NCBI GenBank assembly: GCA_902621345.1
Contig: CACNLV010000001.1
Location: 868,001 to 932,000 of the forward strand
Direction: 5' to 3'
Source: an uncultured Pelagibacteraceae bacterium
GTDB lineage: Bacteria; Pseudomonadota; Alphaproteobacteria; Pelagibacterales; Pelagibacteraceae
Length of the DNA: 64,000 bases
In this document: positions 36,719 through 38,609 of the stretch, piece by piece
How the letters are laid out: every line of letters begins with the position of its first letter
Numbering within the stretch: position 1 is the stretch's first letter
Position numbers and translations under genes: made by a program
Notes under the pieces: generated by a model
Seen by the model: only the letters and a program-made list of their open reading frames with translations
Databases searched by the model: none
What the model was told of the DNA's origin: nothing

Positions 36719-36746
36719 TTGAATCTTCAAGATTTACTTTTATATT
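36719..36746 (+). promoter_or_regulatory. Predicted promoter of the tmRNA gene
   Basis: TTGAAT (36719-36724) and TATATT (36741-36746) are separated by 16 bases. The predicted start near 36753 coincides with the first hairpin of the tmRNA precursor (GTTGG, loop TTTT, CCAAC). Hexamer matches are 4/6 and 5/6. Confidence 0.5.
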
Positions 36747-36752
36747 AAACAT

Positions 36753-37013
36753 GTTGGTTTTCCAACTATGACGATAAACGAATTTCGTAATAACCATTAC
36801 GGACGTGGGGGCAGTACCCACCACCTCCACCATTTACAACTTATGGGGGTGAACTAGATTCGACGGGTGACTAAAGGCTATTCTTTCGTTCGGAATTGTT
36901 CCTCCGTAAAGGGCTAATTTATAATTGCTAACGAAAGTTACGCACTTGCTGCCTAATTAACTTTGTTAATTAAGCAAACGGGGTTTTGGGGCACCTGGCA
37001 ACAGAACGCCCCT
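36753..37013 (+). ncRNA. ssrA: Transfer-messenger RNA, circularly permuted two-piece form (ssrA)
   Basis: The acceptor piece comes first and ends at CCA 36830-36832; its T-arm is GTGGG-GGCAGTA-CCCAC. A 12-base spacer (36833-36844) is removed, and the coding piece begins at 36845 with GGGGGTG. GGGGGTG pairs with CACCTCC (36822-36828), including the G3-U70 wobble that alanyl-tRNA synthetase needs. The tag frame is GCT at 36927 to TAA at 36954-36956, encoding ANESYALAA, a normal proteolysis tag ending ALAA. The 3' limit is set at the last base of the hairpin GGGGC...GCCCC. tmRNA rescues stalled ribosomes with SmpB. Confidence 0.95.
36989..37013 (+). repeat. 25-bp direct repeat, copy 1 (end of the tmRNA coding piece; putative att site)
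   Basis: GGGCACCTGGCAACAGAACG followed by CCCCT, identical base for base to 38585-38609. The sequence can fold as a stem (GGGC with GCCC) with an inner CTG-GCAA-CAG hairpin and is an integral part of the tmRNA. Flanking bases differ (G before and A after here; A before and T after in copy 2). Confidence 0.9.
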
Positions 37014-37088
37014 ACTCTTTTGTTAATTGATTTGCAAAATCAACGTTATTTTGAAAATACAACCTGGTTGGACGATTATGAGTCGGAA

Positions 37089-37490
37089 TTAAATTTTATT
37101 TTCTGAGGTTGCTTCTTTGTAAAATTTATCGAACATTTTTTTCATTTTCTTTTTTAAATTTACATTTCTTTTAACTAATTCGCATTGTTTACCATTGCCA
37201 AAATTAGTTAACTTTAAAGTTTTTCTATTTATATAAAAAAAATATGGTGAATCTTGAATGGCAATTCTCTCAAGATTGTATGAGTACTCTGATTTATAAA
37301 CTTTAAACCCTTGAACTAAAGAACTTTCATTTCCAACTGGGATATATTTAACTTTATATTTTCCAAATTCAAAACTTACTGAAAAATTATCACTTATTTT
37401 GCAGTACACTTTTTTTCCAACTAATTCATTTGCAAAAGCACCTCCACTTAACATTAAAACTAGAGCCACGATTACTAAAATTTTTTTCAT
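37089..37490 (-). CDS. Small secreted protein of unknown function, coupled to the HNH endonuclease gene
   Basis: I do not recognise this 133-residue protein. Residues 1-20 are a Sec signal peptide ending SGGAFA. The mature part has two cysteines (VYCKIS and KQCELV), likely one disulfide, several aromatic residues and a Lys-rich C-terminus (VNLKKKMKKMFDKFYK). Its ATG overlaps the stop of the endonuclease gene as ATGA, so the two are co-translated. It is the distal gene of the islet. A periplasmic partner for a restriction-type nuclease would be unexpected, so it may be cargo. Confidence 0.7.
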   Translation of the reverse strand: MKKILVIVALVLMLSGGAFANELVGKKVYCKISDNFSVSFEFGKYKVKYIPVGNESSLVQGFKVYKSEYSYNLERIAIQDSPYFFYINRKTLKLTNFGNGKQCELVKRNVNLKKKMKKMFDKFYKEATSENKI

Positions 37491-38461
37491 TTTTTAAAAT
37501 TTTTCCTTATTTCATCAACACTGTATGGTGGATTTTTTCTGTGTACCATACGATGACAATTTGAACATAAAACTGAGAAATCCTCAATCTTAAACTCTAC
37601 TATTTCACCTTCCGGTAAGTCCTGAATTTGTCTTTTATGGTGGGCCTCAATATACTCCTCTTTCTTCTTATTAAGACTTAATTTTCCGTATACCTTCTTA
37701 AAATTAAAACCACATGCTTCACAAGTATATCCAAGTTCTTTTTTAACTTTTCTAGAATTTGAGTAAGCCCTCTCAATTCTTCTATGAGTTTTATATTGTC
37801 TCATTTCTTTTAAAGTTGTGAGACCTTCAGATGGTTTATAATCATCCTCTGTGCTATCAGTATCAATGCCACCTTTATACGATAATAGAGAGTACAAGCT
37901 TAACATGTTATTTAGGTCTGTAATTAATTGCTCTTCACTAAAATCTTTTGAAAAATCATACTCTATTCCAAATGCATGTCCTTTTTCGTAAAGATAAGGT
38001 CTAGTAGTGTTTCCTGATAATTTTGTTGATAGATCAATTGGTTTATATTCAAAACTTTTTTTAAATTCTGGAATTCTATCTCTTATAAAATCTGCTCTTC
38101 TTAATAACTCTTTTGCTGCACCTTCAGTTTTTAGCTCCTTTTCTATATCAGTCATACCTTGATTAAAGCTTAAATAAACTCTCTTCATATCTATTGAGAA
38201 TAGATAAACGACATAATAACCCCTCATTGTAGACGTAGTAATTTCAGGATCTAACACAGCTATCCATGGAACATCGGCCCAATTAGAATGCTGACCACAA
38301 CTGCTTCTAAATTTGTAATGATCTTTATTCTTCCTAACATTAGGTTTTATTTTTTCTTTTGAGACACTGTTCATAAATGGAGCTAAGGAACTATCTTTCA
38401 TGGCTCCCATCTTTGCATTTAGATAGTTTGATGAGATTCTTATCAATGCCTCTTTAATCAT
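37487..38461 (-). CDS. McrB-N-terminal-like (DUF3578/MrcB) domain plus HNH endonuclease, predicted modification-dependent nuclease
   Basis: A 324-residue two-domain protein. Residues 1-190 resemble the MrcB N-terminal DNA-binding domain of McrB-type restriction proteins: WADVPWIAVLDPEITTSTMRGYYVVYLFS followed by VYLSFNQG. In place of the McrB AAA GTPase there is a C-terminal HNH nuclease with zinc cysteines C247/C250 and C299/C302, catalytic H274-H275 (EAHH), N301 and H307. This arrangement suggests a type IV-like nuclease that reads modified bases and cuts, acting against phage DNA. It lies in the 25-bp-repeat islet at ssrA. Family reading is good; activity is inferred. Confidence 0.8.
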   Translation of the reverse strand: MIKEALIRISSNYLNAKMGAMKDSSLAPFMNSVSKEKIKPNVRKNKDHYKFRSSCGQHSNWADVPWIAVLDPEITTSTMRGYYVVYLFSIDMKRVYLSFNQGMTDIEKELKTEGAAKELLRRADFIRDRIPEFKKSFEYKPIDLSTKLSGNTTRPYLYEKGHAFGIEYDFSKDFSEEQLITDLNNMLSLYSLLSYKGGIDTDSTEDDYKPSEGLTTLKEMRQYKTHRRIERAYSNSRKVKKELGYTCEACGFNFKKVYGKLSLNKKKEEYIEAHHKRQIQDLPEGEIVEFKIEDFSVLCSNCHRMVHRKNPPYSVDEIRKNFKK

Positions 38462-38584
38462 GATCCAAGGTTATCAAATCCTTTAATCCATGACGACTCG
38501 ATTTTTGGACGTCATATGGACGACCAGACACGTAAAATTTATATGATTTTGGAAAAATAATTGACTATAATCAAACAAAGTTAA

Positions 38585-38609
38585 GGGCACCTGGCAACAG
38601 AACGCCCCT
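38585..38609 (+). repeat. 25-bp direct repeat, copy 2 (displaced tmRNA end; putative distal att site)
   Basis: Identical to 36989-37013. It ends 1 base before the ppdK stop codon (TTA at 38611-38613 on the plus strand). Here the hairpin GGGC-GCCC is followed by TTTT, so it could act as a Rho-independent terminator for plus-strand transcripts, which would fit its being the original tmRNA terminator before insertion. Copy 1 is followed by ACTCTTTT. Confidence 0.9.

What the first reader, a model, noticed from the sequence alone, without database searches (positions are those of the whole stretch)
37487..38461. MrcB(DUF3578)-HNH fusion: candidate modification-dependent restriction nuclease in a streamlined genome
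The N-terminal half carries the McrB-type N-terminal domain pattern (WADVPWIAVLDPEITTS, YYVVYLFS, VYLSFNQG), and the C-terminal half a zinc-bound HNH nuclease with all key residues (C247, C250, H274, H275, C299, N301, C302, H307). The GTPase motor and McrC partner are replaced by a nuclease on the same chain. SAR11-type genomes carry few restriction systems, so a one-gene type IV-like defence against phages with modified bases would matter for their well known phage load.
Basis: partly seen in the sequence, partly recalled or inferred. Interest (0 to 1): 0.75.

Follow-up and report, generated by a model that had tools for sequence, protein, structure and literature searches.

The report
Predicted mobile anti-phage nuclease cassette
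A marine SAR11-type bacterium carries a predicted enzyme that would recognise chemically modified DNA and cut it, and the gene sits in a tiny mobile-looking cassette inserted in an RNA gene, which may show how these very streamlined cells swap phage defences.

Summary
ORF 37487-38461(-), 324 aa, joins an E. coli McrB-type modified-cytosine reader domain (PF12102, E 3.4e-48; the 11 best structural matches are all McrB-N, Z up to 11.4) to an HNH nuclease whose nearest solved relative is McrA. No GTPase or McrC lies beside it. Cleavage of modified DNA is inferred, not shown.

The main addition is the context. The gene and a 4-bp-overlapping exported protein form a 1.6-kb insert at the 3' end of the tmRNA gene, closed by a perfect 25-bp duplicate of that end; three relatives show the empty site. 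In Pelagibacterales, 15 of 21 examined loci of this gene group are bounded on both sides by copies of a tRNA or tmRNA 3' end (tRNA-Thr, tRNA-Met, tmRNA), 4 on one side, 2 not. No integrase was found in the 15. In other cassettes the same reader is joined to NOV_C or NucS-type nucleases. Cassette ends carry iterated short motifs like integrase arm sites.

Verdict: a new variant of modification-dependent nuclease, apparently spread as integrase-less tRNA/tmRNA cassettes moved in trans.

The parts
37487..38461 (-). McrB-N (DUF3578) + HNH one-chain nuclease, 324 aa; reader domain aa 9-192, HNH aa 247-308
37089..37490 (-). 133-aa ORF with a signal-peptide-like start, overlapping the nuclease stop by 4 bp (ATGA); no Pfam match
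   Evidence: signal peptide read by eye; 1 of 101 relatives (own only) has it
36737..37047 (+). permuted tmRNA gene ssrA (ARAGORN limits); in relatives the match mostly ends at about 37013
36989..37013 (+). tmRNA-proximal copy of the 25-bp direct repeat (3' end of ssrA)
38585..38609 (+). distal copy of the 25-bp direct repeat, next to the 3' end of ppdK
37014..38609 (.). inserted cassette, 1,596 bp
   Evidence: repeats; empty sites in G060, G038, G055; no integrase
38506..38522 (+). pair of TGGACG motifs 11 bp apart, possible arm-type site; a third TGGACG at 37069-37074
   Evidence: read by eye; the 8-mer test found no iterated motif in this cassette

Best explanation
The gene encodes a one-chain modification-dependent (type IV-like) nuclease. 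The McrB-N domain would flip out a modified cytosine (5mC, 5hmC or 4mC) and hold it; the McrA-like HNH would cut nearby without an NTP-driven motor. Shown: both domains, their residues, no GTPase or McrC beside it. Inferred: cleavage, substrate, anti-phage role. The gene and a probably co-translated exported protein are the cargo of a 1.6-kb insert at the 3' end of ssrA. Shown: perfect repeats, empty sites, the same arrangement at tRNA-Thr, tRNA-Met and tmRNA ends in other Pelagibacterales, no integrase found in the cassettes. Inferred: insertion by a tyrosine integrase supplied in trans by a phage or satellite.
For: McrB-N by profile and fold; McrA-like HNH with kept residues; 25-bp repeat, 0 expected in shuffles; three natural empty sites; repeats on both sides in 15 of 21 examined loci; no integrase by phmmer in 180 frames of the 15 cassettes; iterated 8-mers at the ends of 10 of 13 cassettes against a mean of 3.7 in resampled ends, 0 of 500 reaching 10; an integrase-bearing 7.8-kb element at the orthologous tRNA-Thr site in G039; no C5 methylase in the own genome.
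Against: No activity data. The HNH of the window scores just below the Pfam cut-off and is modelled poorly (pLDDT under 50 for 196-324). Y41, a position mutated in McrB-N structures, is not kept. The window's own cassette shows no iterated 8-mer at its ends. No helper integrase for the tmRNA core was found, and the 8 viral contigs with that core are phage tmRNA genes. Of the five ssrA-linked repeat intervals seen among 101 relatives only the window's carries a nuclease of this kind. L005 and L160 show no repeats.
Confidence: 0.68

Rival explanations
1. A two-gene system: the nuclease acts only with the overlapping exported protein, for example an envelope sensor, exclusion factor or immunity partner.
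For: In 9 of 21 loci a signal-peptide ORF overlaps the nuclease by 4 bp, also behind other nuclease types.
Against: L156 and L086 cassettes hold the nuclease gene alone; the mature parts of 7 compared partners are unlike each other (best E 0.023 over 24 residues).
Confidence: 0.15
2. A selfish or sequence-specific HNH endonuclease, such as a homing or nicking enzyme, in which the reader domain only binds DNA; not a defence.
For: HNH enzymes are common in phages, and PHROG HNH families match; the gene is mobile.
Confidence: 0.1
3. The repeats arise by homologous recombination or local duplication of RNA gene ends and not by an integrase; the cassettes are moved by general recombination.
For: No helper for the tmRNA core was found; single cores without a second copy occur after gene ends (L056, L063, L067).
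Against: Exact empty sites, nearly fixed orientation (17 of 19 loci), iterated end motifs, the L006 motif flanking the core of a phage site beside an integrase.
Confidence: 0.15
4. Decaying cargo without function.
For: The L006 copy is frame-broken near its N-terminus; the L007 copy is cut by a contig end, so not informative.
Against: The window gene and the other full-length copies listed are open frames with reader and catalytic residues kept at 34-99% identity.
Confidence: 0.06

Closest known systems
E. coli McrB N-terminal domain (McrB-N; DUF3578/PF12102; called ADAM/DUF3578 in PMC11090510, passages seen)
   Same: Same domain by profile and fold; W49, Y64 and L68 align with W66, Y83 and L87
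   Different: Here joined to HNH, with no GTPase and no McrC; Y41 not kept
EcoKMcrA HNH domain (6ghc)
   Same: Nearest solved HNH by profile, 3.2e-7
   Different: The DNA-reading N-half is McrB-N; an McrA-type N-half was not sought beyond the Pfam scan
EVE-HNH enzymes VcaM4I and TspA15I (PMC7897488, abstract and passages seen)
   Same: Modified-base reader followed by HNH on one chain; the paper reports preference for 5hmC and, for TspA15I, protection against T4gt
   Different: Reader is EVE (PUA superfamily) there, McrB-N here
Additive genomic island at tRNA-Lys of Methylophilaceae (PMC10872708, section 13 part 1 read)
   Same: Variable islands marked by repeats of the last 20 nt of a tRNA gene, from 330 bp and 1 CDS upwards
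   Different: Here at tmRNA, tRNA-Thr and tRNA-Met of SAR11, with one- or two-gene nuclease cargo and iterated end motifs
Hitcher elements, e.g. CALIN cassette arrays and MITEs (PMC11389934, passages seen)
   Same: Elements without their own mobility enzyme that depend on a helper
   Different: The site here is a tRNA or tmRNA 3' end; attC sites were not tested

Membership tests
McrB-N / DUF3578 (PF12102) | Profile match over the curated cut-off | tested here: met
   164 bits against 25
McrB-N / DUF3578 (PF12102) | McrB-N fold | tested here: met
   Z 11.4, rmsd 3.1 over 142 residues; rows 1-11 all McrB-N, then DUF1054 proteins at 9.4 and 9.0
McrB-N / DUF3578 (PF12102) | Modified-base pocket residues | tested here: inconclusive
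   W49, Y64 and L68 kept, Y41 not; Y41 and L68 are named in PDB titles, the roles of W49 and Y64 are recalled
HNH nuclease, McrA type | Zinc-binding Cys/His and catalytic His residues | tested here: met
HNH nuclease, McrA type | Pfam PF01844 over its cut-off | tested here: not met
   window 19.8 bits against 21.4; L002, L154 and L155 pass
McrBC type IV system | McrB GTPase and McrC nuclease | tested here: not met
   no AAA domain in the protein; no such gene among the neighbouring ORFs read; the rest of the genome was not searched for McrC
EVE-HNH modification-dependent endonuclease | EVE/PUA reader domain | tested here: not met
   the N-half matches MrcB_N and no EVE model in Pfam
Modification-dependent nuclease | Cleavage that depends on a modified base | not testable with these tools
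   needs a bench assay
Integrase-dependent tRNA/tmRNA cassette (hitcher) | Insert closed by a duplicate of the RNA gene 3' end, with an empty site elsewhere | tested here: met
   15 of 21 loci two-sided
Integrase-dependent tRNA/tmRNA cassette (hitcher) | No integrase of its own | tested here: met
   no phmmer hit of 11 integrase queries in 180 frames of 15 cassettes
Integrase-dependent tRNA/tmRNA cassette (hitcher) | Movement by a helper integrase | not testable with these tools
   G039 element and L105, L110, L117, L167 show suitable integrases and sites, not movement
Integron cassettes / CALIN | attC sites and IntI | not tested
   likeness only: several loci hold tandem intervals with one shared core (L049, L054, L156, L158, L161)

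The most novel reading that the evidence does not exclude
SAR11 bacteria have a general cassette system: one- or two-gene modules closed by tRNA/tmRNA 3' ends and integrase arm motifs, without an integrase, are moved in trans by phage or satellite integrases, stack in tandem at a few RNA genes and also settle at secondary sites such as the one beside rnhA. Interchangeable single-chain modification-dependent nucleases (one McrB-N reader joined to HNH, NOV_C or NucS nucleases) are a recurring defence cargo, so the defence occupies the same attachment sites as the integrating elements it may act against.
Probability: 0.4. Interest if true: 0.8.

Novelty: new variant of a known kind. Interest (0 to 1): 0.62.

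Why it matters
SAR11 is among the most abundant cell types in the sea, with very small genomes and many phages (general knowledge). If these cassettes work as proposed, they are a cheap way to gain and lose single-gene defences against phages or elements with modified cytosines, at sites shared with integrase-bearing elements. The McrB-N reader joined to three nuclease types would also give small, motor-free tools for modified cytosine. Both claims can be tested directly: one gene in laboratory E. coli against T4-type phages, and junction reads in SAR11 genomes.

Tried and rejected
Searches that gave nothing: relatives of the protein in IMG/VR and of the L003 protein; the tmRNA end in the phage collection; the G039 integrase in the phage collection; the motif GTGTGACGYYAGTGTGAC in IMG/VR; PADLOC gave only weak HNH-region matches (best E 0.0021) and NCBIfam nothing meaningful; signal-peptide DNA in the own genome at up to 3 mismatches. 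In one search the tRNA-Thr gene matched 1,213 phage records; the rows shown are mostly annotated tRNA genes, so it was not used.

Rejected: an McrBC system (no GTPase or McrC beside it); a prophage at ssrA (1.6 kb, two genes, none phage-like); chance repeats. I considered the extra tmRNA cores as terminators; shared cassette ends, empty sites and tandem copies argue against it, but single cores after gene ends (L056, L063, L067) stay unexplained. Of 33 IMG/VR loci with the tRNA-Thr end, 27 hold a whole tRNA-Thr gene and say nothing about integration. Inner repeats of tRNA-Leu (L085, L160, L161) are not 3' ends and were left out. L013 and L015 were not Pfam-scanned (one search failed); L162, L164, L165 and L166 were typed by likeness to scanned proteins only.

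Papers. Passages: PMC3874153, PMC7641849, PMC11090510, PMC10030836, PMC9004378, PMC7318151, PMC7897488, PMC11389934. PMC10872708: passages and section 13 part 1 of 2. All others: search listings. That the DUF3578-HNH fusion or these SAR11 cassettes are not in print rests only and the passages named. Two key papers are not held: the MDRE screen 10.1093/nar/gkz755 and the McrB-N structure 10.1093/nar/gks332.

Full report
OBSERVATION. It carries MrcB_N (PF12102, E 3.4e-48) and an HNH motif (PF01844, 19.8 bits, under the 21.4 cut-off). Across eight relatives C250, E272, H274, H275, C299, C302, H303 and H307 are invariant; C247 and N301 are in 7 of 8.

READER DOMAIN. E. coli K-12 McrB matches the same Pfam family (28.8 bits, 1.1e-6). 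A profile of ten DUF3578 domains, E. coli McrB left out, retrieves McrB chains from the PDB (7 of 8 rows up to E 1; best 3ssc 5.1e-10; the eighth row is a designed protein at 0.27). The AlphaFold model, from six rows, has mean pLDDT 54.9; residues 196-324 and some loops are under 50. Its N-half aligns to McrB-N at Z 11.4, rmsd 3.1; rows 1-11 are all McrB-N, including complexes with 5hmC, 5fC and 4mC DNA, followed by DUF1054 proteins at 9.4 and 9.0. Foldseek alone puts McrB-N first with E 3.0e-3 and nothing under 0.001. W49, Y64 and L68 of McrB align with W66, Y83 and L87; Y41 is not kept. PDB titles name Y41 and L68 as mutated positions; the roles of W49 and Y64 are recalled.

NUCLEASE DOMAIN. 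An eight-row HNH profile finds EcoKMcrA first (6ghc, 3.2e-7). So the chain pairs an McrB-type reader with an McrA-type cutter. A Priestia plasmid protein has both PF12102 and a sub-cut-off HNH match; in another alphaproteobacterium (L013) PF12102 and an McrA-like end are found. PF12102 was found in 2 of 101 relatives, 7 of 385 class genomes and 6 of 398 phylum genomes, own genome counted each time. These are lower bounds: the same search rang in 0 of 14 control genomes, though E. coli is one of them (named) and K-12 McrB passes the cut-off.

INSERT IN THE tmRNA GENE. A perfect 25-bp repeat lies at the 3' end of ssrA (36989-37013) and again at 38585-38609, directly before the 3' end of ppdK; shuffles give none. 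In G060, G038 and G055, picked by eye from the printed flanks, the ssrA core is followed at once by the ppdK 3' end. These are natural empty sites, and the 1,596 bp are an insert with the nuclease and the overlapping exported-protein ORF. Among the 101 relatives, tmRNA-linked second cores were also seen in G014, G025, G029 and G034; their cargo, by eye, is not a nuclease of this kind.

THE SAME IN OTHER GENOMES. A profile of the family matched 18 of 397 Pelagibacterales genomes. With three further loci from genome contigs (L005, L006, L007) 21 loci were examined. L004 and L152 look like one contig (length 22,105 in both) and count once. Two-sided repeats, 15 of 21: window, L152, L155, L156, L157, L158, L159, L161, L162, L163, L165, L166, L085, L086, L006. 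L157 rests on a 21-nt distal copy and holds a further 531-aa ORF. One-sided, 4: L153, L154, L164, and L007 (a tRNA-Met-like 3' half, judged by eye). None, 2: L160 and L005. Sites: tRNA-Thr 7, tmRNA 6, tmRNA core with no tmRNA gene in the stretch 3 (L006, L159, L164), tRNA-Met 2, L007 likely a third. The repeats of tRNA-Thr reach 54 nt at 100%. L156, L158 and L161 hold tandem copies. Some cassettes are near-identical between genomes (L163 and L165; L164 and L166; window and L152), so the loci are not independent. In 17 of the 19 loci with a core the nuclease gene runs opposite to the RNA gene or core; both exceptions are the tRNA-Met cassettes. In 18 of the loci, 13 of 18 target genes against 20 of 247 other ORFs of 100 aa or more lie inside such intervals; that count includes the discovery locus, treats partner genes as others and is not independent.

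CARGO IS SWAPPED. L162, L164, L165 and L166 look alike to scanned ones but were not scanned. L086/L003 keeps an HNH with a different N-domain without a Pfam match. In 9 of 21 loci a second ORF overlaps by 4 bp; its signal-peptide start is alike at DNA level while the mature parts, in 7 compared, are not.

WHO MOVES IT. Eleven integrase queries give no phmmer hit in 180 frames of the 15 two-sided cassettes. The own genome has one PF00589 match, in a 325-aa frame. In G039 a 7.8-kb element with a 451-aa integrase, a primase-like gene and a repeat of the tRNA-Thr end occupies the orthologous tRNA-Thr site. Three of 33 IMG/VR loci with the tRNA-Thr end have an integrase about 100 bp from a fragment without a whole tRNA. 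Iterated 8-mers occur at the ends of 10 of 13 cassettes tested against a mean of 3.7 (largest 9) in 500 resamplings; the window, L157 and L163 have none. The motif differs by cassette; the G039 element has its own. The L006 motif occurs twice in phage contig L167, on either side of a tRNA-like core (by eye), 1 kb from a PF00589 integrase and near an HTH_17 protein. L167 has 57% GC against 31% for the window, so it shows the kind of site, not the helper. The exact tmRNA core is in 8 viral contigs, all 8 with a tmRNA gene there. A helper for the window's own cassette was not found.

MECHANISM. The lack of a C5 methylase match in the own genome fits (the model rang in 10 of 14 controls). C5 methylase genes beside a core or an integrase in other SAR11 genomes (L068; L083) would be natural targets. 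These functional steps are inference.

NOVELTY. The parts are known. The McrB-N + HNH fusion was not described in the passages found, but a key screening paper is not held. Islands with tRNA-end repeats are known in Methylophilaceae (PMC10872708). The combination, single-chain McrB-N nucleases as cargo of integrase-less tRNA/tmRNA cassettes in SAR11, was not found. I rate it a new variant of a known kind.

Noticed in passing
L068 2653-4603 (G031); also L006 and L164: The site beside the rnhA-like gene holds a tmRNA core in three genomes, with different cargo: a C5-cytosine methylase and a 222-aa ORF (L068), DUF3578-HNH (L006), a 154-aa ORF plus a DUF3578 protein (L164).
   Followed up: partly
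L122 about 18047 to L123 5874 (G039:C72): A 7.8-kb integrative element with a 451-aa integrase, a primase-like gene and small HTH-type ORFs at the tRNA-Thr gene; satellite-like.
   Followed up: partly
L003 1042-1884 / L086 6684-7526 (G081): A 280-aa HNH protein with an N-domain of unknown family, alone in a 0.9-kb cassette at tRNA-Thr.
   Followed up: partly
L156 1387-2712, L157 4354-5679, L159 5927-7435: An N-terminal extension of about 100 aa before DUF3578 that reminds me of a HARE-HTH module (recalled; no Pfam match).
   Followed up: no
window 37490 downwards; L152, L155, L158, L161, L162, L085: The first about 35 bases of the partner ORFs are alike at DNA level, with a GC-rich stretch, while the rest is unlike; this could be a recombination point for cargo exchange.
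   Followed up: partly
L049, L051, L052, L054, L059-L062: Other intervals between tmRNA cores, some in tandem, hold mostly unknown, secreted or membrane proteins.
   Followed up: partly
L056, L063, L067: Single tmRNA-like cores shortly after gene ends, without a second copy nearby; origin unexplained.
   Followed up: no
L069-L076: Eight marine viral contigs carry their own permuted tmRNA gene with the same 24-nt core.
   Followed up: yes
L083 2527-6847 (G010): An integrase gene followed by a C5 methylase, a 153-aa ORF and a 637-aa ORF; looks like a restriction-modification island with its own integrase.
   Followed up: no
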